A stretch of DNA of 64,000 nucleotides from Solidesulfovibrio sp. (GTDB lineage: Bacteria > Desulfobacterota > Desulfovibrionia > Desulfovibrionales > Desulfovibrionaceae), in NCBI RefSeq assembly GCF_038562415.1, contig NZ_JBCFBA010000020.1, forward strand, positions 1 to 64,000. Direction: 5' to 3'. This document shows, in pieces, positions 4,515-19,246 of this stretch. How positions within the stretch are numbered: position 1 is the first letter of the stretch; each line of letters begins with the position of its first letter. Position numbers and translations under genes: made by a program. Below the pieces are notes generated by a model. That model was not told where the DNA came from, searched no databases, and saw only the letters and a program-made list of their open reading frames with translations.

Positions 4515-4654
4515 GCCAATAGCGGTTTTCCCAGGCGTCACGCGTTTTCCGCCCCCCCGTCACCAACCCGTAACATGGCGCCCCTAGCTTTCCCTCGCGA
4601 ACTGGGGCACTTCGCGCCAATCGTGGCGCGACAACCAATTTTGAGGAGGGTTCC

Positions 4655-5458
4655 ATGAAAAAACTGCTCGGTATCGTGGCCGCGTGCCTGTTGCTGGCTG
4701 CCAACGCCTTTGCCGACACCACCATCAAGGTGGACGGCTCCACCACCGTGCTGCCCATCATGCAAAAGGTCGTCGAGGCCTACATGAAGGCCCATCCGGA
4801 CGTGAAGATCTCCGTGTCCGGCGGCGGTTCGGGCAACGGCATCAAGGCGCTCATCGACGGCGCCACCGACGTGGCCATGGCCTCGCGGGCCATGGAGGCC
4901 AAGGAAATCGACCTGGCCAAGAGCAAGAACGTCAACCCCAACCAGATCGTGTGCGCCATCGACGCCATCGTGCCCGTCGTCCACCCGACCAACAAGCTCA
5001 CCGAGATCAGCCTGGCCCAGCTCAAGGACCTCTACATGGGCAAGATCACCAGCTGGAAGGACCTCGGCGGCGAGGGCCCGGTGGTCGTGATTTCCCGCGA
5101 CACCTCCTCGGGCACCTACGAGACCTGGGAAGGCCTGGTCATGAAAAAGGAGCGCGTGTTCCCCGGCGCCCTGATGCAGGCCTCCAGCGGCGCGGTGGTC
5201 CAGGCCGTCGGCAAGAACAAGAACGCCATCGGCTACGTGGGCATCGGCTACCTCGACGCCTCCACCAAGGGCCTCAAGGTCGACGGCGTGGAGCCCACGG
5301 CCGAAAACGCCAAGTCCAAGAAGTTCCCCATCTCCCGCGACCTCTACCTCTACACCAACGGCGCCCCCGCCGGCGCGGCCAAGGGCCTGGTCGACTTCCT
5401 GCTGAGCGCGGATGGCCAGAAGCTGGTCAAGGAAGCCGGTTTCGTGCCCCTCAACTAA
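4655..5458 (+). CDS. pstS: Phosphate ABC transporter, periplasmic phosphate-binding protein
   Basis: Binds inorganic phosphate in the periplasm and delivers it to the PstCA permease. The 267-aa protein starts with a cleavable signal peptide (residues 1-20, cut after AFA). The mature part has the family's N-terminal GSTTVLPIM loop, SGGGSGNGIKAL, and the second-lobe phosphate-binding segment SRDTSSGTYETW. A strong GAGGAGGG ribosome site sits just before the ATG. It is first in the pstS-pstC-pstA unit, behind a Pho-box-like promoter, so it should be induced by phosphate starvation. Confidence 0.95.
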   Translation: MKKLLGIVAACLLLAANAFADTTIKVDGSTTVLPIMQKVVEAYMKAHPDVKISVSGGGSGNGIKALIDGATDVAMASRAMEAKEIDLAKSKNVNPNQIVCAIDAIVPVVHPTNKLTEISLAQLKDLYMGKITSWKDLGGEGPVVVISRDTSSGTYETWEGLVMKKERVFPGALMQASSGAVVQAVGKNKNAIGYVGIGYLDASTKGLKVDGVEPTAENAKSKKFPISRDLYLYTNGAPAGAAKGLVDFLLSADGQKLVKEAGFVPLN

Positions 5459-5531: not shown

Positions 5532-6425
5532 ATGGCCCTTTCGCGAAAGTCCAAGGACACCCTGATCCAAAACGCCTTCTTCCTGACCGCCCTGTCCTCC
5601 ATCGTGGCCTTGGCGCTCATCATGATCTACCTGTTCGTGGAGGGCCTGCCGATCTTCAAGGTGGTCTCGGTCACGGACTTCCTGTTCGGCAACCTGTGGT
5701 ATCCCACGTCCGACCCGCCGGAATTCGGCATCTTTCCGCTGATCGTCGCGTCGCTGGCCGTCACGGCCCTGTCCTCGGCCATGGCCATCCCGCTGGGCGT
5801 GATGACCGCCATCTACCTGGCCGAAATCGCCAGCCGGCGCACCCGCGACATCTTCAAGCCCATCGTCGAGCTCCTGGCCGCCCTGCCCTCGGTGGTCATC
5901 GGCTTTTTCGGCATGGTCGTGGTCGCCCCCTACCTCCAGGACACCTTCGACCTGGCCACGGGGCTCAACCTCTTCAACGCCGCCATCATGCTGGCCTTCA
6001 TGTCCGTGCCGACCATCTGCTCGGTGTCCGAGGACGCCCTGTACGCCGTGCCCCGCGAGCTCAAGGAAGCCTCCCTGGCCCTGGGCGCCACCCATTTCGA
6101 GACCATCGCCAAGGTGGTCCTGCCGGCCTCGCTGTCCGGCATCTCCACGGCCATCATGCTCGGCATGTCCCGGTCCATCGGCGAGACCATGGTCGTGCTG
6201 ATGGTCGCCGGCGGCGCGGCCATCATCCCCGCCTCCGTCTTTTCGCCCGTGCGGCCCATGCCGTCGAGCATCGCCGCCGAAATGGCCGAGGCGGCCTTCC
6301 GCGGCAACCACTACCACGCGCTGTTCGCCATCGGCATCGTGCTGTTCCTTTTCACCCTGGCCTTCAACCTCGTGGCCAGCCACGTGGCCGAAAAGCACAA
6401 ACAGGTCGGCGCGGCCACCCTGTAG
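5532..6425 (+). CDS. pstC: Phosphate ABC transporter permease PstC
   Basis: One of the two inner-membrane channel subunits of the Pst importer. The 297-aa protein has about six hydrophobic segments and the cytoplasmic EAA loop (ELKEASLALGATHFETI, about residues 177-193) that docks onto the PstB ATPase. ATG 5532 is preferred: the open frame continues upstream, overlapping the end of pstS with non-membrane sequence. It lies 73 bp after pstS and 18 bp before pstA. Confidence 0.93.
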   Translation: MALSRKSKDTLIQNAFFLTALSSIVALALIMIYLFVEGLPIFKVVSVTDFLFGNLWYPTSDPPEFGIFPLIVASLAVTALSSAMAIPLGVMTAIYLAEIASRRTRDIFKPIVELLAALPSVVIGFFGMVVVAPYLQDTFDLATGLNLFNAAIMLAFMSVPTICSVSEDALYAVPRELKEASLALGATHFETIAKVVLPASLSGISTAIMLGMSRSIGETMVVLMVAGGAAIIPASVFSPVRPMPSSIAAEMAEAAFRGNHYHALFAIGIVLFLFTLAFNLVASHVAEKHKQVGAATL

Positions 6426-6443: not shown

Positions 6444-7322
6444 ATGAATCCCGCAGCCATCGCCCACGCCGGCCTGGCCCGACGCCACCGCACCCAGAAG
6501 ATCATGTGGGGCGTCTTCGGCCTGTCCTCGCTCATCAACATGGCCGCCCTGGTGCTCATCTGCGGCTTTTTGCTCATCAAGGGCCTGCCGGCCATCTCCT
6601 GGGGTTTTCTCACCGAAATGCCCCGCGACTCCATGACCGCCGGCGGCATTTTGCCCTGCATCCTGGGCACGCTGTACCTCAGCCTGGGCACCATGTGCGT
6701 GGCCTTTCCCCTGGGCGTGGCCTCGGCCGTGTACTTAAACGAATACGCCCGGCCGGGCCGGACGCTGCGGCTGATACGCCTGGGCATCAACAACCTGGCC
6801 GGCGTGCCCTCGGTGGTCTTCGGGCTGTTCGGCCTGGCCTTTTTCGTCACCTTCTTCGGCCTGGGCGTGAGCCTGCTTTCGGGCATCCTGACGCTTTCCA
6901 TCCTGGTGTTGCCGGTCATCATCGGCACGGCCGAGGAAGCGCTCAAGTCCGTGCCCCAGACCTACCGCGAGGCGTCGCTGGGGCTCGGGGCCACCAAGTG
7001 GCAGACCATCCGGCTGGTGGTGCTGCCGGCGGCCCTGCCGGGCATGCTCACCGGGGCCATCCTGGGGCTGTCCCGCGTGGCCGGCGAGACGGCCGCCATC
7101 ATGTTCACCGCCGCCGTCTTCTTCACGCCCTACCTGCCCAGCACCCTCACCGATTCGGTCATGGCCCTGCCCTACCACATCTACGTCCTGGCCACGGCCG
7201 GCACGGACATCGACAAGACCCGGCCGCTGCAATACGGCACGGCCCTGGTCCTCATCGTCCTGGTCCTCGGCATGAACCTCGGGGCCATCCTCTACCGGGC
7301 CAAGCTGCAGAAAAAACGGTAG
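6444..7322 (+). CDS. pstA: Phosphate ABC transporter permease PstA
   Basis: Second channel subunit of the Pst importer, 292 aa, about six membrane segments. The EAA loop is TYREASLGLGATKWQTI, and SRVAGETAAIMF is typical of PstA. The gene is followed by a strong terminator instead of pstB and phoU, which usually follow, so the ATPase must be encoded elsewhere. Confidence 0.93.
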   Translation: MNPAAIAHAGLARRHRTQKIMWGVFGLSSLINMAALVLICGFLLIKGLPAISWGFLTEMPRDSMTAGGILPCILGTLYLSLGTMCVAFPLGVASAVYLNEYARPGRTLRLIRLGINNLAGVPSVVFGLFGLAFFVTFFGLGVSLLSGILTLSILVLPVIIGTAEEALKSVPQTYREASLGLGATKWQTIRLVVLPAALPGMLTGAILGLSRVAGETAAIMFTAAVFFTPYLPSTLTDSVMALPYHIYVLATAGTDIDKTRPLQYGTALVLIVLVLGMNLGAILYRAKLQKKR

Positions 7323-7488: not shown

Positions 7489-7656
7489 CATGCCATGCCA
7501 ACTTCTTGATTTTCCAGGCGCGCGCGCCTATCCCCGAACATGGAGGCCTGTTTCGGGAGTGGCGCCGCCCCATCGGGAAGGCGGCCAACGGATGCCGAAG
7601 GCGGCCGGGTTGCCCCGGTGCCCTGCGGCGCGCAACAGGGCTTCAGGGAGGCTCTC

Positions 7657-8862
7657 ATGACGCAGGAGCAGGAAACGGGACGCAAGAACTACGTGCTCGA
7701 CACCAACGTCCTGATCGAAAACCCGCAAAGCGTGCTGAAGCTGCGAAACGGCGTGGAAAACGCCATCCACATCCCCTACCACGTGCTCATGGAGCTGGAG
7801 GCGCTCAAGAAAACCCCGAAACTGCGCCACATCGTGGCCAACGTCATCCAGATCCTGGGCGACAACCGCGAGCACATCCACTTCATCCAGAACGACAAGA
7901 GCCACTCGGCCTTCACCGACATCGTCGACAACCACATCCTCGACGAGATCCAGGCCTCGACCATCGAGGACCCGGTGCTGGTGACCAACGACCGCATCCT
8001 CAAGCTCCAGGCCGAGCTGCGCGGCATCAAAAGCGAGGAGCTGCGCGACTCCAAGCCCTTCGAGTCCGAATCCCAGCGCTACACCGGCTTCGCCGAGGAC
8101 GACGGCGAGATCGTGCCCAACTGCTTCACCTGGCGCGACGGCAAGCCGGTGCTGCACGCCCCGGACGGCGAGAAGGTCATCAACTACACCTGCGACGTCT
8201 GGAACGTGCGGCCGCGCACCGTCTACCAGAACCTGGCCCTGGAACTCATCATGGCGCCGCACATCGACCTGGTGTCCATCCAGAGCGAGGCCGGCTACGG
8301 CAAGACCTTCCTGGCCCTGGCCGCCGCCCTCTACGCCGTGCAGGAGAAAAAGCACTACGAAAAGATCTTCGTGCTCAAGCCCACCATCGAGATCGGGGCC
8401 AAGCTCGGCTACCTGCCGGGCGATGTCTCGGAAAAGATGGAACCGTACATGAAGTACGTCTTCGACCTGCTGGTCAAGCTGCACCGCTGCCGGGCGGCCA
8501 ACAAGGTCTTCCTCAACCCCAATGACGAGATGCTGCGCATCAATCCGAAAAAATTCGAGGTATTGCCCCTTGCCTACGTGCGCGGCATGAACATCGAAAA
8601 CGCCTTCGTGGTCATCGACGAGGCGCAAAACCTCTCGCGCACCGAAGTGCGGGCCGTGCTCACCCGCATGGGCGAGGGCGTCAAATGCGTCGTGCTCGGC
8701 GACACTTCCCAGGTGGACAACCCCTACCTCAACGAAGCCAACAACGGGCTCAACTGGATCGTGCGCAAGTTCAAGGGGTTCGCCAACTACGCCCACATCG
8801 TGCTCAAGGGCGAGCGTTCGCGCGGCCCCATCACCGACATGGTCCTGCGCTCCAAATTGTAG
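7657..8862 (+). CDS. PIN domain plus PhoH-type ATPase (PhoH2-like)
   Basis: A 401-aa fusion. Residues about 10-150 are a PIN ribonuclease domain beginning YVLDTNVLI with the catalytic Asp. Residues about 190-400 are a PhoH P-loop ATPase with Walker A EAGYGKTFLAL, Walker B VVIDEAQNLS and the GDTSQVDNPYL motif. Known PIN-PhoH proteins unwind and cleave RNA. ATG 7657 has a good ribosome site (CAGGGAGG); the open frame extends upstream without domain sequence. Despite the name, the link to phosphate starvation is only suggested by the pst operon upstream, from which it is separated by a terminator. Confidence 0.9.
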   Translation: MTQEQETGRKNYVLDTNVLIENPQSVLKLRNGVENAIHIPYHVLMELEALKKTPKLRHIVANVIQILGDNREHIHFIQNDKSHSAFTDIVDNHILDEIQASTIEDPVLVTNDRILKLQAELRGIKSEELRDSKPFESESQRYTGFAEDDGEIVPNCFTWRDGKPVLHAPDGEKVINYTCDVWNVRPRTVYQNLALELIMAPHIDLVSIQSEAGYGKTFLALAAALYAVQEKKHYEKIFVLKPTIEIGAKLGYLPGDVSEKMEPYMKYVFDLLVKLHRCRAANKVFLNPNDEMLRINPKKFEVLPLAYVRGMNIENAFVVIDEAQNLSRTEVRAVLTRMGEGVKCVVLGDTSQVDNPYLNEANNGLNWIVRKFKGFANYAHIVLKGERSRGPITDMVLRSKL

Positions 8863-9159: not shown

Positions 9160-12381
<3,222 letters not shown>

Positions 12382-12481
12382 GGACGGCGCGCCGCCATCA
12401 AATCGTCATGGACCGAGCCGTATTTGTGTCGCAACCGCAACGCCCGGACAGACGTCGCCGGGAAAACCAAGGAGATGCGTC

Positions 12482-13081
12482 ATGTCCGCCTCGCGCAAAC
12501 GCAAGTTCGAGATGGTCCTGCCCCGGGTCGAGGCCCTGCGCGCCCTGACCGAACTGACGGCCCGGGCCGCCGAGGGCGCCCTGGTCGTCGGCGGCGAGGC
12601 CGTCGCCCTGAAGGACTTCACCAGCCTCAAGATCGGCATCAAGGACCTGGGTGCCTCGTGCCTGCTCAAGGTGAGCCTCAAGTACCCCGCCCTGGGCGTG
12701 GCCGCCCTGCCCTCGCCCGCCAGCGTGGACGCCGAGGAGGGCCGCCGCGAACACGTCGCGGACCACGCCCCGGAACCCATGGACGAAGGGGACAAGCCCA
12801 GGTACAAGGGGCTTAAAAAACGGATGAAGCATTTTTTCAAGGCCATCGTCACGTCGCTTCGGGCCGGGACTGCCCCCGATGCCGACGTCCTGGCCGCCTT
12901 TGTCGCCGACAGCCGGCTGATGACCGGCTATCCCGGCCGGGGCGACGCCTTCTATCCGGCCTACGACGCCGAGGTGGACCGGCTGGAAGCCGCCGCCGCC
13001 GCCGGCGACCTGGACGCCATGACCGCTTCGGTGGCGGCGCTCGATCGCATGAAAAAGGAGTGTCACAGCCGCCATGCCTGA
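12482..13081 (+). CDS. XXXCH protein of a GAK-like system (amphi-Trp-like domain plus XXXCH domain)
   Basis: A 199-aa protein, function unknown. Residues 5-70 align by eye with the amphi-Trp protein encoded at 14344 (FEMVLP...LKVSLKYP against FKYESV...LHLKFSWRE). The C-terminal helical part ends DRMKKECHSRHA, matching what I remember as the XXXCH domain: a helical bundle ending like a cytochrome c' heme site but lacking the first Cys of CxxCH. The AAGGAG ribosome site is well placed before ATG 12482. It is first of four tightly packed genes and overlaps the next by 8 bases. Family assignment is from memory of the GAK-system models, not a search. Confidence 0.72.
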   Translation: MSASRKRKFEMVLPRVEALRALTELTARAAEGALVVGGEAVALKDFTSLKIGIKDLGASCLLKVSLKYPALGVAALPSPASVDAEEGRREHVADHAPEPMDEGDKPRYKGLKKRMKHFFKAIVTSLRAGTAPDADVLAAFVADSRLMTGYPGRGDAFYPAYDAEVDRLEAAAAAGDLDAMTASVAALDRMKKECHSRHA

Positions 13082-14270
13082 TGCCGACACCTTGCCCCCG
13101 GGCGCCCCGCCGCGCCCCGCCGGCCCCGACGAGGCCCGCTGCGCCGGCATCGACCTCTCCCGCCTGGACCCGGCCGTCACGCAGGAAGACGAACAGGCCT
13201 TTGCGCGCATCAACGACGTGTCGCTTTCGCCCGAGCAGGCCGAGCGCATCGCCTCGCCGGCACGCACCTACCCCCGCCAGGAATACGTCCTGGCCACCCA
13301 CTGGCACCCCGAACACGTGCCCATGGAACTGCTCAAGACGCGCATCGACCGGCTCTACCCCAACCGCGTGGACGAACTGATCATCCCCACCCAGCACAAC
13401 GTGCTGCTCGGCTACGACGGCTACCAGGGGGTGGAGGTGGACTGCTACTCCAGCGGCTTCAACCGCAAGGTCCAGCTCCTGCTCCATTTCAAGGGCCTCG
13501 ACCCCGAGCGGGCCGAGGTGCTCGCCTCCATGCTGCGCCACACCCACCGCTACCGGGCCTCCCAGCTGTTCGAATACCTCGACGCCCTGTGCGAGCCGGC
13601 CGGCGAGCCCAGGCGCCAACTGGCCGCCGCCCGCTCCAACGCCGAGGAGGAGCTCGTGGGCTTCGTGGCCCTCCAGGCGGCCAAGATCAAGGCGCTGATC
13701 CTGGCCCACGAGGCGACGCTTCCCGAGGACACCTACAAAAACAAGCTCGTGCGCAACTTTCTCGACACGTTGCGCCCGCGCTTCGGCGAACGCATCGTCA
13801 ACAAGGCCCAAGTCTACGCCAAGGCCGTCAAGGACCTGGTCAAGGAGGCCTTTTCGCTCTCCTATTTCTACCGGGCCACGGAGGTGATCGAGGAGGCCCG
13901 GTCGCTGGGGGCCGGCATCGTCATCCCCCACCCCGAGCAGTTCTGGCCGATTCTTCTCGCCGACTACGACGTGGACGGCATCGAGGTCTGGAACCCCCAG
14001 TCCCAGCAGTACACGGAATTTCTCATCAACGTGGTCAACCGCCGCAACCGCATGGGCTGGCACGGCAAGCGCCCCTTGCTCATCTTCATGGGCGACGACT
14101 GCCACATGAGCGAAAAGACCCGGGATCCGGCCGAGCAGGACGCCTCCAAGGCGGCCCGGGAAATCGGACTCCAGCCCGCCTGGCACGACTTCGCCATCCG
14201 CAAGAGCCTGATCATCAACGGAGTCAGCCGCCGCAAGGTCATCGGCGAATACCGGTCCCGGCTGGGTTGA
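13074..14270 (+). CDS. PHP-superfamily metal-dependent phosphoesterase-like protein
   Basis: A 398-aa protein with all four PHP-type metal motifs in order: HxH in ATHWHPEH (about residue 75), IPTQHN (about 105), IPHPEQFWP (about 285) and GDDCHM (about 345), plus GIEVWNP before the last. Between motifs II and III lies a helical insertion of about 150 residues absent from small PHP enzymes. PHP proteins hydrolyse phosphoesters with two or three metals; the substrate here is unknown. It overlaps the XXXCH gene by 8 bases, so the two are translated together. It could be a family-specific hydrolase of the GAK-like system. Confidence 0.7.
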   Translation: MPDADTLPPGAPPRPAGPDEARCAGIDLSRLDPAVTQEDEQAFARINDVSLSPEQAERIASPARTYPRQEYVLATHWHPEHVPMELLKTRIDRLYPNRVDELIIPTQHNVLLGYDGYQGVEVDCYSSGFNRKVQLLLHFKGLDPERAEVLASMLRHTHRYRASQLFEYLDALCEPAGEPRRQLAAARSNAEEELVGFVALQAAKIKALILAHEATLPEDTYKNKLVRNFLDTLRPRFGERIVNKAQVYAKAVKDLVKEAFSLSYFYRATEVIEEARSLGAGIVIPHPEQFWPILLADYDVDGIEVWNPQSQQYTEFLINVVNRRNRMGWHGKRPLLIFMGDDCHMSEKTRDPAEQDASKAAREIGLQPAWHDFAIRKSLIINGVSRRKVIGEYRSRLG

Positions 14271-14291
14271 GCCCGGGCAACGCCGCGCCGA

Positions 14292-14310
14292 GCCGGCCCG
14301 CAAGGCCGGC
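14292..14310 (+). other. Intra-operon hairpin before the amphi-Trp gene
   Basis: GCCGGCC (14292-14298) pairs with GGCCGGC (14304-14310) across a CGCAA loop, and five T residues follow only at 14322-14326. It sits in the 73-bp gap inside the operon and might act as a partial terminator or processing site; weak evidence. Confidence 0.3.
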
Positions 14311-14343
14311 CGGGGCACCCGTTTTTGCCGCAAGGAGTGGGAC

Positions 14344-14640
14344 GTGGAAAAGGAAACGCGGTTCAAATACGAGTCCGTCCAGGACGCGCAAACGCTCGCC
14401 CGCTACCTCGAGGCCGTCACGGCCGGCTTTGCCGCCGGCGAGTTGCGGTTTTCCAGCCGCGAAGGCGAGGTGGCCCTGCATCCCGGGGGCGTGATCGGCT
14501 TCCTGGTCGAAGCCAAGTCCATGGGCGGGCGCATGAAGCTCCACCTGAAGTTTTCCTGGCGCGAGGACGGCGGCGAGGACGGCGACACGGGCCTGACCAT
14601 CGCCCCGGGACAGCCCGCCGCCCACGACGCCGACGAGTAG
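14344..14640 (+). CDS. Amphi-Trp domain protein
   Basis: A 98-aa single-domain protein with an alternating amphipathic beta pattern ending in the LHLKFSWRE segment whose Trp gives the family its name, followed by an acidic tail. GTG 14344 is the start, supported by AAGGAG at 14333-14338. It sits between the PHP gene and the PhoU-kinase fusion, 4 bases before the latter. Function unknown; the family occurs (from memory) beside ATP-grasp and HprK-like kinase genes of the GAK system. It resembles the N-terminal half of the XXXCH protein. Confidence 0.75.
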   Translation: MEKETRFKYESVQDAQTLARYLEAVTAGFAAGELRFSSREGEVALHPGGVIGFLVEAKSMGGRMKLHLKFSWREDGGEDGDTGLTIAPGQPAAHDADE

Positions 14641-14644
14641 GGCC

Positions 14645-16279
14645 ATGCGCATTCTCGAAGGCATCGAAGAGAATTTCCGTTTCATGGTGCTCGAGGTGTC
14701 CAAGCAGGTGGGAAGCGCCCTGCTGGTGGTCGAGCGGCCCGACCCCGATCGCATCAAGCGCATCGAGAGCCGCGACGATTACATCGACAACCTCAAAAGC
14801 GTGATCGAGAACGCCTGCTGGGGCCGCATCCACGGCTCGCGCGACGGCAACAAGCGCACGCTGGACCTCGTGCGCGCGGCCAACATCATCAACATCAACC
14901 TGGAGCGCATCGCCGACTACGCCGTCAACATCGTCTCCCAGGTCCAGTACCTGACCGACCCCCTGTTCATCCGGCGCTACGACTACCGCGACGCCTTCCT
15001 GGACGTGGACAAGGCCCTGGGCCTGGTCTTTCCGGCGCTGACCCGCCAGGACGTGCGCCTGGCCCTGCGCATCTGCCGGGCGGAATTCTCCCTGGACGAC
15101 CGGTTCAAGGCCGCCTTCGACGCCATCCTGGCCGACCTGCGCCGGGGCGAGTCCCCGGAAAACGCCATCTCCAGCTTCAACATCTTCCGCTATCTCGAAC
15201 GCATGGGCGATGCGCTGTTAAACATCGGCGAGGCCGTCATCTTCGCCGCCCTGGGCGAGAAGCTCAAGATCCACCAGTACCAGGCCCTCCAGGATTCCCT
15301 GGCCCACGGCGGCGAGGACATCCCCCTGTCCCCCGGGGACTTCAGCTCCATCTGGGGCACGCGCTCGGGCTGCCGCATCGGCCGGGTGGAAGACCACGGC
15401 CCGCGTTCCAAGGGCGTGCTGTTCAAGGAGGGCAACGCCGAAAAGCTGGCCAAGGAAAAGGAGAACATCGAGCGCTGGCAGCGCCTTGCCCCGGGATTGC
15501 CGCCGGGGATCCAGGCCTTCCAGACCGACGGCGACTCGGCCTCCATGCTGCTCGAATACCTGGGCGGCTGCAATTTCCAGGAAGTGGTCCTCACGGCCGA
15601 CCGGGAGATCGTGGAGAACGCCTGCTTCCTCATCACCCAGACCGTGGGCGCCGTGTGGGAGCAGACCCTGGTCAGGGAACCGGTGGCCACGGATTTCATG
15701 GCCCAGATGCGCGCCCGCCTGGGCGACGTGTTCCGGCTCTACCCCGGCTTCGCCAGGGGGCCCAAGACCCTGTGCGGGCTGGCCGTGCGCTCCGTCCCCG
15801 ACCTGATCGAGGCGGCCACCGAGGCCGAAAAGGGGCTTTGCGCGCCCTTTTCCGTGTTCCTGCACGGCGACTTCAACCTCAACAACATCGTCTACGACCA
15901 CACCGCCCAGCGCATCCACTACATCGACCTGCACCGCTCCCACCAGGGCGACTACGCCCTGGACGCGGCGGTCTTTCTGGCCTCGAACTTCCGGCTGCCC
16001 GTTTTCGAGACGCGCCTGCGCCAGCGCATCCAGCTGGTCATGGACCGGTTCCTGGAATTCGTCCGGGCCTTCGCCGCCGAGCAGGGCGACGCCACCTTCG
16101 AGGCCCGGCTGACCTTCGGCCTGGCCCGGGCCCTGGCCACCTCGGCCCGGTTCGAGGTCAACCGCGCCTTTGCCCAGGAACTGTTCCTGCGCGGGCTCTA
16201 CCTGCTGGAGCGCCTGGCCGCCCGGGCGGGCAGGCCGTTCGCGGGCATGGCCTTTCCCGACGCCGTGCTCGTCTACTAG
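14645..16279 (+). CDS. PhoU domain fused to an aminoglycoside-phosphotransferase-like kinase
   Basis: A 544-aa fusion. Residues 1-210 are a PhoU-like helical bundle (RILEGIEENFRFM, NLERIADYAVNIV, FRYLERMGDALLNIGEAV). Residues about 230-540 are an APH/choline-kinase-type domain: the Brenner motif LHGDFNLNNIVYD near 405, the metal-binding Asp in YIDLHRSHQGDYALD, and a hinge-like MLLEYLGG. It probably phosphorylates a small molecule or protein, with PhoU-type regulation linked to phosphate or metals; this is inference. It is last in the four-gene operon and converges on the kinase gene ending at 16289. It carries the only PhoU domain in the window. Confidence 0.82.
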   Translation: MRILEGIEENFRFMVLEVSKQVGSALLVVERPDPDRIKRIESRDDYIDNLKSVIENACWGRIHGSRDGNKRTLDLVRAANIININLERIADYAVNIVSQVQYLTDPLFIRRYDYRDAFLDVDKALGLVFPALTRQDVRLALRICRAEFSLDDRFKAAFDAILADLRRGESPENAISSFNIFRYLERMGDALLNIGEAVIFAALGEKLKIHQYQALQDSLAHGGEDIPLSPGDFSSIWGTRSGCRIGRVEDHGPRSKGVLFKEGNAEKLAKEKENIERWQRLAPGLPPGIQAFQTDGDSASMLLEYLGGCNFQEVVLTADREIVENACFLITQTVGAVWEQTLVREPVATDFMAQMRARLGDVFRLYPGFARGPKTLCGLAVRSVPDLIEAATEAEKGLCAPFSVFLHGDFNLNNIVYDHTAQRIHYIDLHRSHQGDYALDAAVFLASNFRLPVFETRLRQRIQLVMDRFLEFVRAFAAEQGDATFEARLTFGLARALATSARFEVNRAFAQELFLRGLYLLERLAARAGRPFAGMAFPDAVLVY

Positions 16280-16288
16280 GCCGGGGCA

Positions 16289-19042
16289 TCAGCCCATGGG
16301 CAGGGACACCTCGACCAGGGTGCCCGTTTCGGGGCTCGTCTCCATGCGGATGGCGCCGTGCTGGCAAAGCGTCATGAGTCTGGCCGAATAGGCCCCCAGG
16401 CCGCTGCCGCCCTTCTTGCCGCCGGTGGTGTATTTCTCGAAAAACACCGGGGCGATGTCCTCGGGCACCATGGCCGGGTTGGCCACGGTGAAAACCACCC
16501 GCTCCCCCTGGCCGGCCACGCGGACGGTCACGGCGCTGCCGGGCGGTTCGGCCTCGATGGCGTTTTTCAGCAGGTTGGCGGCGATGGTCTGGCACAACAG
16601 CGCGTCGCCCAGGGCGAACACCGGGCCTTCGGCTTCGACGGAAACGGCGACGCCCCTGGCCCGGGCCGTCTTGGCCAGCATCTCCGCCACGCCCGACACG
16701 ATACGGGCCATATCCACCCGCTGGGCGGTGAGCACGTACGTTGCGGTCTCCATCCTGTAGAGGTCGAGCGACAACTCGATCTGCTCCAGCATGACATGGC
16801 CGGCCCGCTCGATCTCGGCCAGCATCTCCTGCTGCTCTTCGTTGACTTCGCCCACGGCCATGACGAGCCCGGGCAGGTTGACGATGCTGTTGAGCGGCGC
16901 CTTGAGGTCGTGGCGCATGATGCGCTCCACGTCCTCGCGCACCGCCTCCAGCTCCTTCCGGGCCGACACGTCGTCGAAGATCCAGATGGAACCCGAGGCC
17001 GGGCTGTCCGGATCGATACGCCGGCCGTGGAGGGAACACCAAAACGTCCGGCCCGCCGAGGTGCGCAGCCGTTCCTCGGCCTGCACCGCCCCCCCCGCCG
17101 CCACCTTGGCCAACAGTTCGCGGCGCAACACCTCCAGCCGCGTCGATCCGTCGTGGATGTCCGCAAGCGCCCGGCCGGCCAAATCCTCGGGGTCGAGGCC
17201 GAAGAGTTCCCCAAACCGACGATTGGCCCGCACCACGCGTTCGTCGGCGCCCAGATGCACGATGCCCACCGAGGAAGCGTTGAAGATGGCCTCGAACTCG
17301 CTCATCAAAAGCCGCAGCCGGTCCTCGCGTTGCCTCCGGTCGGTGATATCCTCCTTGACGGCCACGAAATGGGTGATGACCCCGGCATCGTCGCGCACGG
17401 GCGAGATGGAGGAGTCCTCCCAGTACAGGTCCCCGTTTTTCTTGCGGTTGCAAAGCTCTCCACGCCAGATGCGCCCGGCGACGAGCGTCTCCCACATCTC
17501 CCGGTAGAAGGCCTCGGGGTGGACGCCGCTTTTGAGCACCCGGGGGGTCAGGCCCCTGGCCTCCTCGGGCGTGTAGCCGGTCAGGATGGAAAAATGCGGG
17601 TTGACGTATTCGATGACGCCCTGGGGGTCGGTGATGACGATGGAGGCCGGCGACTGGTCCACGGCCGCCCACAACAGGCGCAGGGCCTCCTCGCTTTGGC
17701 GCAGGGCCCGCTCGGCGGCCAGCCTGTCCGAGATGTCCCGGATGTAGCCGCCCACGCCCATCACCCCCCCGTCCAGGGGCACCGGGAACTTGCGCACCTC
17801 AAGGGTTCGCTCGTCCACGGTTTCGCGTAGCGTGACCACCTCGCCGCCATCCCGAGCGGCCAGGTCGGACTCGTGGCAACGGGCGGCCAGGACGGCCGGC
17901 ACGAGCTCGTAGTCCGTGCGCCCGGTCACCTCGCCGGGCGTCCTGCCGAAAAACTCCGCCAGCAGCCTGTTGACGACGACATAGCGCAGCCCGGCGTCCT
18001 TGATGAAGGCCATGTCCCGCGTGGCGTCGATGAAGGCCCGATAGCGGGCTTCCCCCAGGCGCAAGGCCGTGTTGGCCTCGGTCAGCGCCGCCGTGCGCGC
18101 CGCCACCGTGCGTTCCAGGTCGGCGTTGGCCGTGTCCAGGGCGGCCGTGGCCCGGGACACGGCCCGGGACAGACGCGCCGGCCAGGACAGGAACACGAAA
18201 AAAACCGCCCCCAGGGCCAGCCAGGTGCAGCCCGCCGCCGCCACGAGGCTCGGCCGGGGCGGCGACCCCGACCAGCCGCCGGACGGCGCCGCGGCCAGCA
18301 GCCAGTCCCCGCCCGGTACGGGCATGGTGGCCGTTTCCGGATCGGTGTCGAAAACCGCCGGGTCGCCGAAGACCAGCGCGTTCCGGGAATCGTCGCCGGA
18401 CTGTTCCCGGATGGCCAGGCGCAAGGAGCCGTCCGAAGCCAGGCGCAGGTCGCCGAAAAACGTGCCGGCATCGATGATGACCGTGGCCAGCCCCCACAGC
18501 CGGGCCGGTTTCGGCCCCGGCCCGGCCGGGAAGACCGGCTCCCGGGCGATCAGCCCTTGGCCGCCCTGGAGCAGGTCCACGGGAGGGGTGACCACGGCGC
18601 GACCGTATCGGAGGGCGTCGAGCAGGTCCTTGCGCTGGGCGGACGGCAGGCCCCGGACCAGGTCCAGGCCGAGAATGCCGTCGTTGCCCGTTTCCGGAAA
18701 GACGTGGCTGACCACGCCGTCCCGGGCCAGTTGCAGGGAGCGGATGCCCGGCACGCCCTCGACGAGACTCGCGGCAAAGGCGGCGAAGGCTTGCGGGCTC
18801 GCCCCGGGGTCGCTGGCGGCGAAGGCGGCGATGGCCCGCAGGAACGCCAGGCGGGCGTCCAGGGCCGCCCGCAGGGACAGCCGGATGTCGCCGAGATGAG
18901 AACTGATTTCGGCGCGGCGGTTTTCGTCGAAACGCCGGGCCTCGACGTGCCACAACAACCACGAAGCGGGCACGACGAGCACCGAGGCCGCCAACAAGGC
19001 CAACACCACCAGCTTGGCCCTTTGTCCGAGGCCATGGATCAT
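16289..19042 (-). CDS. Membrane sensor histidine kinase with CHASE-like and three PAS domains
   Basis: A 917-aa kinase. A membrane helix at about 5-25, a periplasmic CHASE-like domain at about 40-260 (GVPGIRSLQLARDGVV), a second helix near 280-300, a coiled coil, PAS domains near 340-460, 470-590 and 600-720, and a kinase core with H-box IMRHDLKAPLNS (His near 711) and an ATPase domain with NLLKNAIEA and GGSGLGAYS. ATG 19042 is chosen because the membrane helix follows; the frame runs 62 codons further upstream over the terminator. No receiver is attached and no response regulator is adjacent. The gene stands alone between a terminator and a convergent operon. Confidence 0.88.
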   Translation of the reverse strand: MIHGLGQRAKLVVLALLAASVLVVPASWLLWHVEARRFDENRRAEISSHLGDIRLSLRAALDARLAFLRAIAAFAASDPGASPQAFAAFAASLVEGVPGIRSLQLARDGVVSHVFPETGNDGILGLDLVRGLPSAQRKDLLDALRYGRAVVTPPVDLLQGGQGLIAREPVFPAGPGPKPARLWGLATVIIDAGTFFGDLRLASDGSLRLAIREQSGDDSRNALVFGDPAVFDTDPETATMPVPGGDWLLAAAPSGGWSGSPPRPSLVAAAGCTWLALGAVFFVFLSWPARLSRAVSRATAALDTANADLERTVAARTAALTEANTALRLGEARYRAFIDATRDMAFIKDAGLRYVVVNRLLAEFFGRTPGEVTGRTDYELVPAVLAARCHESDLAARDGGEVVTLRETVDERTLEVRKFPVPLDGGVMGVGGYIRDISDRLAAERALRQSEEALRLLWAAVDQSPASIVITDPQGVIEYVNPHFSILTGYTPEEARGLTPRVLKSGVHPEAFYREMWETLVAGRIWRGELCNRKKNGDLYWEDSSISPVRDDAGVITHFVAVKEDITDRRQREDRLRLLMSEFEAIFNASSVGIVHLGADERVVRANRRFGELFGLDPEDLAGRALADIHDGSTRLEVLRRELLAKVAAGGAVQAEERLRTSAGRTFWCSLHGRRIDPDSPASGSIWIFDDVSARKELEAVREDVERIMRHDLKAPLNSIVNLPGLVMAVGEVNEEQQEMLAEIERAGHVMLEQIELSLDLYRMETATYVLTAQRVDMARIVSGVAEMLAKTARARGVAVSVEAEGPVFALGDALLCQTIAANLLKNAIEAEPPGSAVTVRVAGQGERVVFTVANPAMVPEDIAPVFFEKYTTGGKKGGSGLGAYSARLMTLCQHGAIRMETSPETGTLVEVSLPMG

Positions 19043-19213
19043 AACGCCGCATCCTTCGAGGCTGACCGGCGGGGGCGCGGTCCGGGCGCGCTCGCCGCAG
19101 GGACGTCTGTCCTTCCCCAATCGTTTCTGTGTATCCGTATGCCCAGGCGACCGCAAGAAGGCCTGGGCGAAATCGTGTCGCCTCCTGGGCAGCGTCCTTC
19201 GCCTGCGGCAACG

Positions 19214-19246
19214 AAAAAGCCCCCGCACCGGGCGAGGGCTTTTTCG
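19214..19246 (-). terminator. Terminator of the small secreted protein gene
   Basis: GAAAAAGCCC (19214-19223) pairs with GGGCTTTTTC (19237-19246); read on the minus strand the stem ends in a T run 18 bases after the stop at 19264. The symmetry would let it work in both directions. Confidence 0.8.

What the first reader, a model, noticed from the sequence alone, without database searches (positions are those of the whole stretch)
12482..16279. Four-gene operon with PHP hydrolase, XXXCH, amphi-Trp and PhoU-kinase proteins: a GAK-like system of unknown function
The sequence shows four tightly packed genes (8-bp overlap, 73 bp, 4 bp). Two match, from memory, the amphi-Trp and XXXCH families that define the uncharacterised GAK system of Desulfovibrio-like bacteria, where they sit with ATP-grasp, CofD-like and HprK-like kinase genes. 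Here those partners are absent and are replaced by a PHP-type metallohydrolase and a kinase fused to PhoU. A hydrolase plus a kinase plus two binding-type proteins looks like a phospho-modification cycle on an unknown substrate.
Basis: partly seen in the sequence, partly recalled or inferred. Interest (0 to 1): 0.78.

Follow-up and report, generated by a model that had tools for sequence, protein, structure and literature searches.

The report
Split GAK operon in phosphate regulon
Four neighbouring genes in a sulfate-reducing bacterium are one piece of a larger, uncharacterised enzyme system (GAK) that sits with the cell's phosphate-starvation genes and occurs in relatives that lack the usual polyphosphate-making enzymes, so it may build or break down a phosphate reserve.

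Summary
In detail: the four genes are where stated, and two pass the NCBIfam cut-offs for XXXCH and amphi-Trp. The reading needs correcting. The GAK partners are not absent or replaced: the PHP hydrolase and PhoU-kinase are themselves core GAK genes. Of 149 family genomes, 73 have PHP, 72 have grasp_GAK, 72 have both, and in 59 these two lie within 6 kb. In the window's genus the system is split over three loci.

New link: GAK belongs with the Pho regulon. Upstream in the window lie pstS-pstC-pstA and a PhoH-type gene. In some lineages GAK follows phoU. Strict PhoB-type boxes precede 12 of 79 GAK heads against 14 of 478 other genes, at one spacing of five tried. None of the 73 GAK genomes has polyphosphate kinase PPK1 or PPK2; 27 and 18 of the other 76 do. 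A genome whose chromosome length equals Desulfovibrio gigas' carries GAK behind a PhoB-like gene, a histidine kinase, pstB and phoU.

Best reading: a PhoB-controlled kinase/phosphatase pathway for a PPK-independent phosphate reserve. Pho membership is well supported; the product is inferred.

The parts
12482..13081 (+). XXXCH protein (199 aa): N-terminal amphi-Trp-like domain (about 5-68) plus C-terminal four-helix domain (108-198) ending in conserved Cys194-His195
   Evidence: TIGR04358 107.6 bits, cut-off 40; hhalign of XXXCH against amphi-Trp alignment prob 87.6, E 3.5e-6; 5 of 37 aligned members hit PF20068 at E<=1, best 0.0014; AlphaFold2 pLDDT 86.4, pTM 0.60; Foldseek: no hit with E<=0.001; rank 1 is a phage Mu baseplate (prob 0.51), ranks 2-16 are cytochrome c' (prob 0.99-1.00, E 0.025-0.081)
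13074..14270 (+). PHP-type metallophosphoesterase (398 aa) with a helical insertion (about 148-277)
   Evidence: invariant H76, H78, E80, H108, E121, D123, H138, H286, D341, D342, H344 over 40 sequences; AF2 pLDDT 89.9; Foldseek 9etk, 3e0f, 3o0f prob 1.00, E 1.0e-5 to 1.8e-5, TM-score 0.37-0.51; no HMM hit above cut-off
14344..14640 (+). amphi-Trp protein (98 aa, GTG start)
   Evidence: TIGR04354 67.7 bits, cut-off 31; PF20068 30.8, cut-off 27
14645..16279 (+). PhoU domain fused to an APH-type kinase (544 aa)
   Evidence: PF01895 74.9, PF01636 26.5, PF02958 27, all above cut-off; TIGR02135 73.1, below its 130.25 cut-off; invariant K261, E271, H407-G408-D409, N414, D428 and PhoU E185/R186/D189, with E87 and D91 in 90% or more, in 20 sequences
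4655..5458 (+). pstS, phosphate-binding protein (267 aa)
   Evidence: TIGR02136 263.6 bits, cut-off 206.6; read
5532..6425 (+). pstC (start chosen by eye; ORF listed from 5412)
   Evidence: TIGR02138 280.2 bits, cut-off 196.45
6444..7322 (+). pstA
   Evidence: TIGR00974 293.8 bits, cut-off 193.45
7540..8862 (+). PhoH-type ATPase (real start may be near 7657; PIN-like N-terminus is recalled)
   Evidence: NF053827 PhoH2 166.4 bits (cut-off 680) and NF007827 PhoH 126 (cut-off 380), both below cut-off
9160..12381 (+). large hybrid histidine kinase, ends just before the XXXCH gene
   Evidence: ORF and translation; domain naming is recalled, not tested
4558..4574 (+). PhoB-box-like direct repeat CGTCAC-N5-CGTAAC upstream of pstS
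   Evidence: only strict YGTNAC-N5-YGTNAC match in 64 kb, expected 0.07; N4 form: none, expected 0.12
12392..12409 (+). weak E. coli-type Pho-box-like site (13 of 18) upstream of the XXXCH gene; uncertain
   Evidence: 1% of 300 shuffles as good, best of three regions tried; no strict YGTNAC box here

Best explanation
The four genes are one of three dispersed pieces of a complete GAK system in this Solidesulfovibrio-like genome. GAK is a PhoB-regulated pathway that makes and remobilises a phosphorylated reserve without polyphosphate kinase. SHOWN by computation: PHP and grasp_GAK co-occur almost perfectly and the GAK families share an operon in most genomes seen; the operon lies near or inside Pst/PhoU/PhoB clusters in several lineages and a subset of operons carry PhoB-type boxes; the GAK-positive family genomes searched lack PPK1 and PPK2; kinase and hydrolase active-site residues are conserved. 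INFERRED: the PhoU half reads phosphate or metal status and gates the APH-type kinase, which phosphorylates a small acceptor, perhaps a sugar. The RimK-type ATP-grasp, HprK-type kinase and CofD-type transferase add further (di)phosphates or carrier groups. The PHP enzyme removes phosphate when Pi is short. Amphi-Trp and XXXCH proteins act as carrier or scaffold, and a ParA-type ATPase found beside them in some genomes may position the deposit.
For: Co-occurrence: 72 of 149 genomes have both PHP and grasp_GAK, 1 PHP only (contig end, 87% complete), 0 grasp only; 59 of 72 within 6 kb. Pho context: pstS-pstC-pstA above NCBIfam cut-offs in the window; XXXCH or PHP next after phoU in L054, L055, L056, L067 and L147, and after pstSCAB-phoU with one or two genes between in L159 and L167; the genome's own third locus is phoU-HprK-CofD (L075; PhoU above cut-off); pst or phoU genes in 13 of 80 named loci (L145 dropped); PstC within 15 kb of PHP in 11 of 73 genomes, 0.67 expected. 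PhoB-type boxes: 12 of 79 GAK heads against 14 of 478 others, spacer 5 only (p 5.5e-5); with one mismatch 24 of 79 against 46 of 478 (p 3.5e-6). PPK exclusion: PPK1 0 of 73 against 27 of 76, PPK2 0 of 73 against 18 of 76. A genome whose chromosome length (3,693,899 bp) equals the published D. gigas value has GAK behind a PhoB-like gene, a histidine kinase, pstB and phoU (PstB, PhoU above cut-off; PhoB-like gene best hit TIGR02154 254.7, below its 296.2 cut-off) with a box before the PhoB-like gene and no PPK1 or PPK2 hit. D. gigas is reported to form polyphosphate-like granules (Jones and Chambers 1975, seen only as cited in PMC9239181 and PMC5134017).
Against: No biochemical or genetic datum on any GAK protein was found. 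PPK exclusion is strong by genome but clustered by lineage: by genus 1 of 25 against 7 of 19 (p 0.014), and outside the family 0 of 15 against 27 of 268 is not significant (p 0.38). 49 of 76 GAK-negative family genomes also lack PPK1. The window's own GAK head has no strict box, and 67 of 79 GAK heads have none. The 11 PstC-near genomes fall in three genera. In most named loci (67 of 80) no pst or phoU gene was called beside GAK, though some loci are short. XXXCH-CofD pairs also occur without PHP, PhoU-kinase, grasp or HprK (L078-L081). RimK relatives are ligases, not known diphosphate kinases, and the conserved ATP-grasp motif reads EVSA, where the recalled family norm is E-x-N.
Confidence: 0.42

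Rival explanations
1. GAK is a phosphate-responsive signalling module: the PhoU-kinase and HprK-like kinase phosphorylate a protein (perhaps XXXCH or amphi-Trp), the PHP enzyme reverses it, and the modified protein tunes Pst uptake or the Pho response.
For: PhoU domain fused to a kinase, HPr-kinase-like protein (PF07475 30.5 bits, just under its 33.3 cut-off), two small non-catalytic proteins, Pho-cluster location and PhoB-type boxes.
Against: Needs neither an ATP-grasp ligase nor a CofD-type transferase; APH-type kinases mostly act on small molecules (recalled); PHP enzymes mostly act on small phosphates or nucleic acids (recalled). Does not explain PPK exclusion.
Confidence: 0.25
2. GAK is a carrier-protein pathway: the RimK/LysX-type ATP-grasp attaches a group to the C-terminus of XXXCH or amphi-Trp, kinases and CofD decorate it, PHP trims it, giving a phosphate-linked cofactor or peptide.
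For: ATP-grasp profile matches RimK/LysX/alpha-glutamate ligases (3vpd E 9.8e-23); the XXXCH tail Cys-His is conserved at the very C-terminus; CofD is full length.
Against: No acidic LysW-like tail seen (LysW comparison recalled); amphi-Trp C-termini are variable; no known peptide pathway uses a PhoU domain (recalled).
Confidence: 0.2
3. Phosphate-scavenging or envelope-remodelling enzymes induced by starvation (for example lipid or nucleic-acid phosphate recycling), with no storage role.
For: PhoB-type boxes; PHP fold close to RNase AM; a short XXXCH-ParA pair lies among conserved, unidentified neighbours in five loci.
Against: Several ATP-using enzymes make poor sense for a scavenging route; PPK exclusion unexplained.
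Confidence: 0.1

Closest known systems
GAK system as named by NCBIfam (TIGR04354 amphi-Trp, TIGR04355 HprK_rel_B, TIGR04356 grasp_GAK, TIGR04357 CofD_rel_GAK, TIGR04358 XXXCH)
   Same: XXXCH and amphi-Trp in the window; all five families in the genome above cut-off
   Different: Here split over three loci; two further core genes (PHP hydrolase, PhoU-kinase) that no NCBIfam GAK model matched in my scan. No paper on the GAK system was found in the held library, so I cannot say what is known elsewhere about a phosphate link
Polyphosphate kinase pathway (PPK1/PPK2)
   Same: In the 149 family genomes GAK and PPK genomes do not overlap, as expected of alternative phosphate reserves
   Different: Different enzyme types: APH, HprK, ATP-grasp, CofD and PHP
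PhoU
   Same: PF01895 domain with both ERxxD-type motifs conserved
   Different: Fused to an APH-type kinase; below the TIGR02135 PhoU equivalog cut-off
PHP phosphoesterases (RNase AM 9etk, BAD_1165 3e0f/3o0f)
   Same: fold and metal-site motif order
   Different: 15-16% identity, large helical insertion, no HMM match
Cytochrome c' and b562 four-helix bundle
   Same: predicted fold of the XXXCH C-terminal domain; CH near the C-terminus; 7 and 13 of 37 members hit those Pfam models at E<=1
   Different: no first Cys of CXXCH, no signal peptide seen by eye (not tested), E-values weak

Membership tests
GAK system | XXXCH and amphi-Trp proteins above NCBIfam cut-offs | tested here: met
GAK system | grasp_GAK, HprK_rel_B and CofD_rel_GAK in the same genome | tested here: met
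   G000 over cut-off
GAK system | those partners adjacent to the four genes | tested here: not met
   C20 against C1:569.6-573.5k and C1:660.5-662.7k; PHP and grasp within 6 kb in 59 of 72 genomes but separated in all 9 drawn genomes of the window's genus
PHP phosphoesterase | HxH ... E ... H ... HP ... DxH motif order | tested here: met
   invariant columns; motif order recalled
PHP phosphoesterase | PHP fold | tested here: met
PHP phosphoesterase | match to a PHP family HMM | tested here: not met
PHP phosphoesterase | phosphatase activity | not testable with these tools
   needs enzyme assay
PhoU-APH fusion kinase | intact PhoU motifs and kinase catalytic residues | tested here: met
Pho regulon | PhoB-type box at GAK operon heads, as a family | tested here: met
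   12 of 79 against 14 of 478, spacer 5 only; 67 of 79 without a strict box
Pho regulon | PhoB-type box directly before the window's XXXCH gene | tested here: inconclusive
   no strict box; 13/18 E. coli-type site; strict box before pstS upstream
PPK-independent phosphate storage | absence of PPK1 and PPK2 from GAK genomes | tested here: met
   0 of 73 family genomes for both
PPK-independent phosphate storage | product accumulates phosphate | not testable with these tools
   needs 31P NMR and electron microscopy
Anti-phage defence system | match to PADLOC models | tested here: not met
   0 of 7 proteins at E<=0.001

The most novel reading that the evidence does not exclude
GAK is the missing gene set for the diphosphorylated-sugar granules of Desulfovibrio. 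D. gigas electron-dense bodies are recalled to consist of glucose pentakis(diphosphate) (Hensgens et al. 1996; recalled, not found in the held library). A PhoU-gated APH kinase, an ATP-grasp kinase or ligase, an HprK-like kinase and a CofD-like transferase would load the sugar, PHP would unload it, amphi-Trp and XXXCH proteins would coat the granule and ParA would space it. It would be a phosphate reserve that replaces polyphosphate in these bacteria.
Probability: 0.18. Interest if true: 0.92.

Novelty: new variant of a known kind. Interest (0 to 1): 0.68.

Why it matters
GAK is a named gene system for which I found no paper in the held library. Its PHP gene has 209 relatives among species genomes; the best 80 are mostly Desulfobacterota, with some in contigs labelled Phycisphaerae or Phycisphaerales, planctomycete, Zixibacteria and Atribacteria. 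Tying it to the Pho regulon, adding two core enzymes, and showing that it avoids PPK genomes in the family turns 'unknown function' into a directly testable claim about phosphate storage. If the D. gigas link holds, it would give genes to a phosphate granule described in 1975 whose synthesis genes I recall from no paper.

Tried and rejected
GAK literature: no paper holds 'GAK system'; 5 papers hold the letters 'xxxch' and none 'amphi-Trp', and by title none is on the family (listing only). Glucose pentakis(diphosphate): 0 papers, 2 unrelated by title and abstract start. Defence function: no PADLOC hit. PDB search by PHP profile: one hit, a ribosomal protein at E 0.45. E. coli Pho-box scan of GAK heads: 7 of 110 heads against 1 of 110 control stretches inside the operons at p<=0.05, inconclusive. 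The D. vulgaris half-site was then used. PMC3333781 (passages) gives a 4-bp spacer; I tested spacers 3 to 7 and only 5 (11-bp period) was enriched, so that choice was made after looking, with the other spacers and other gene heads as controls. Dropped before the count: heads with less than 100 bp upstream gap, near-duplicates sharing a 25-mer, and heads of pst/phoU genes (3 of 21 had the box) and of other GAK families. Phylum-level PPK exclusion: not significant. Window-type and second-locus PhoU-kinases as recent duplicates: not supported; the three second-locus copies in the tree form their own clade (100/99) apart from the window copy. PMC5193443 (passages) was searched for a mutant phenotype: D. 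alaskensis G20 has phosphorus-rich electron-dense granules when phosphate is ample and lacks them when it is limiting; whether it carries GAK was not established.


Full report
What is there. The four genes, gaps and overlap are exactly as reported. NCBIfam puts protein 1 in XXXCH (107.6 bits, cut-off 40) and protein 3 in amphi-Trp (67.7, cut-off 31). Pfam gives PhoU and APH domains in protein 4, both above cut-off. Protein 2 matches no family HMM above cut-off. Its alignment of 40 sequences keeps the PHP motif order: H76xH78, E121, H138, H286-P, D342xH344 (the order itself is recalled). AlphaFold2 gives mean pLDDT 89.9, and the only three Foldseek PDB hits with E<=0.001 are RNase AM and two entries of BAD_1165. 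The kinase residues and both PhoU motifs of protein 4 are conserved in 20 sequences.

It is part of GAK. Over 149 genomes drawn from the family, P0002 homologues are in 73, grasp_GAK above cut-off in 72, XXXCH in 80, amphi-Trp in 91. PHP and grasp_GAK coincide in 72; the one PHP-only genome, G055, is 87% complete with the gene near a contig end. In 59 of 72 they lie within 6 kb. The full order is XXXCH-PHP-amphiTrp-PhoUkinase-grasp-HprK-CofD, often with a last amphi-Trp (for example L034, L112, L134). Among 114 PHP-bearing loci (many cut short by contig ends, some from the same genome, and my gene caller misses genes), the unbroken seven-gene run was called in 27; neighbouring pairs were PHP-amphi 96, amphi-PhoUkinase 91, PhoUkinase-grasp 90, XXXCH-PHP 74, grasp-HprK 64, HprK-CofD 48. 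So the PHP and PhoU-kinase genes are core members, not replacements. HprK_rel_B was over cut-off in 19 and CofD_rel_GAK in 29 of 33 genomes that I chose for that test. CofD with XXXCH also occurs without the rest (L078-L081), so GAK looks like two modules.

In this genome the system is split: window C20 (XXXCH-PHP-amphi-PhoUkinase); C1:569.6-573.5 kb (amphi, a second PhoU-kinase 47% identical, grasp, HprK); C1:660.5-662.7 kb (HprK, CofD) with phoU just upstream (PhoU 143.8 bits, cut-off 130.25). PHP and grasp are likewise separated in all 9 drawn genomes of the genus and in 4 of two other genera (G031; G041, G069, G088). A tree of 30 PhoU-kinases puts the three second-locus copies in one clade (100/99) apart from the window copy, so the genome carries two GAK lineages.

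Phosphate context. In the window, pstS (4655-5458), pstC and pstA, all above NCBIfam cut-offs, and a PhoH-type gene (below cut-off) precede the four genes on the same strand, with a histidine kinase ORF between. XXXCH or PHP is the next called gene after phoU in L054, L055, L056, L067 and L147; in L159 and L167 pstSCAB-phoU is followed by two and one other genes and then XXXCH; in L157 pstSCAB is followed by one other gene and then XXXCH. L054, L055, L056 and L067 also have a response-regulator gene of the same cluster upstream, and all but L055 a histidine kinase between. PstS, PstC, PstA, PstB (L157) and PhoU (L147, L111) representatives are above cut-off, as are PstB and PhoU of L056; others are labelled by BLAST. 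Of 80 named loci, 14 held a pst or phoU call; one (L145) is a broken PhoU-kinase, leaving 13; 57 of the 80 hold 12 kb or more. PstC lies within 15 kb of PHP in 11 of 73 genomes, 0.67 expected under uniform placement on 4 Mb, but the 11 fall in three genera.

PhoB-type boxes. PMC3333781 (passages read) gives the D. vulgaris half-site (c/t)GT(n)AC as a direct repeat with a 4-bp spacer. Among de-duplicated gene heads (at least 100 bp of upstream gap), the strict repeat with spacer 5 occurs before 12 of 79 GAK heads (XXXCH or PHP) and 14 of 478 others (one-sided p 5.5e-5); spacers 3, 4, 6 and 7 give 0 of 79. With one mismatch, spacer 5 gives 24 of 79 against 46 of 478 (p 3.5e-6), with no significant enrichment at other spacers. 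Several of the 14 'others' are response-regulator genes of the Pho-like clusters (L054, L055, L056, L169) or genes that share an upstream region with pstS or GAK, so the contrast is conservative. The only strict match in the 64-kb window is 4558-4574, before pstS; expected 0.07. The window's XXXCH head has no strict box.

Polyphosphate kinase. PPK1 is in 27 of 149 family genomes (E<=1e-30) and PPK2 in 18 (E<=1e-20). None of these is among the 73 GAK genomes; Fisher p 1e-9 and 2.6e-6. By genus it is 1 of 25 against 7 of 19 (p 0.014), the one being g20, where GAK and PPK1 sit in different species. In a phylum draw of 296 genomes, 20 had GAK and 33 PPK1 with no overlap; outside the family 0 of 15 against 27 of 268, not significant.

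D. gigas. Genome G015 has a contig of 3,693,899 bp, the published D. gigas chromosome length (PMC4287179, passages). Reading along one strand it carries a PhoB-like regulator (best hit TIGR02154, 254.7 bits, below its 296.2 cut-off), a histidine kinase, pstB, phoU, XXXCH, PHP, amphi-Trp, PhoU-kinase, grasp, HprK and CofD, with a strict box before the regulator, and no PPK1 or PPK2 hit. D. gigas granules were described as polyphosphate (Jones and Chambers 1975, seen as cited in PMC9239181 and PMC5134017). I recall a later report that they are glucose pentakis(diphosphate); no paper in the held library shows it.

Small proteins. The XXXCH N-terminus resembles amphi-Trp (hhalign prob 87.6; 5 of 37 members hit PF20068 at E<=1). 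Its C-terminal domain is predicted as a cytochrome c'-like four-helix bundle ending in Cys-His; Foldseek E-values are weak. A ParA-type ATPase (Pfam AAA_31 114.3 bits for L033's copy) lies beside amphi-Trp or short XXXCH genes in 10 of the 60 loci L031-L090, which were themselves chosen for such genes.

Mechanism. Shown: gene set, conserved active sites, Pho linkage, PPK avoidance in the family. Inferred: a PhoU-gated kinase pathway loads, and PHP unloads, a phosphate-rich product. The product is unknown; a sugar diphosphate reserve is the boldest reading that fits.

Confidence. GAK membership about 0.97; PHP fold about 0.95; Pho-regulon membership of GAK about 0.85; phosphate reserve about 0.4; glucose pentakis(diphosphate) about 0.18.

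Noticed in passing
L033:5274-7261, L085:5983-7994, L040:12901-14380, L051:4349-5757: ParA-type ATPase next to amphi-Trp genes, in some genomes directly after the GAK operon
   Followed up: partly
L032:6746-7895, L077, L082, L083, L084: A short (96-114 aa) XXXCH protein paired with ParA inside a conserved neighbourhood that includes an ABC-type ATPase; the neighbours were not identified because the HMM call failed
   Followed up: no
L078-L081: XXXCH-CofD pairs without PHP, PhoU-kinase, grasp or HprK: GAK may be two separable modules
   Followed up: partly
L031:11562-12446 and alignment A7: GAK ATP-grasp has invariant E-V-S-A-F-G-G-F where RimK relatives are recalled to have E-x-N; its Mg site or chemistry may differ
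   Followed up: no
L159:5364-5807 (also L167:7187, L165:1042): ArsC-like low-molecular-weight phosphatase-type gene recurring beside GAK (TIGR02691 108.5 bits, below its 174.3 cut-off)
   Followed up: no
G061, G083, G110, G122, G134: Five genomes of genus g29 carry two PHP and two grasp_GAK copies on different contigs
   Followed up: no
L060:8242-9483: A PHP homologue with no other GAK gene called nearby
   Followed up: no
window 16289-19228 (-) and 9160-12381 (+): Two large sensor histidine kinase ORFs flank the four genes (domain naming recalled); ligands unknown
   Followed up: no
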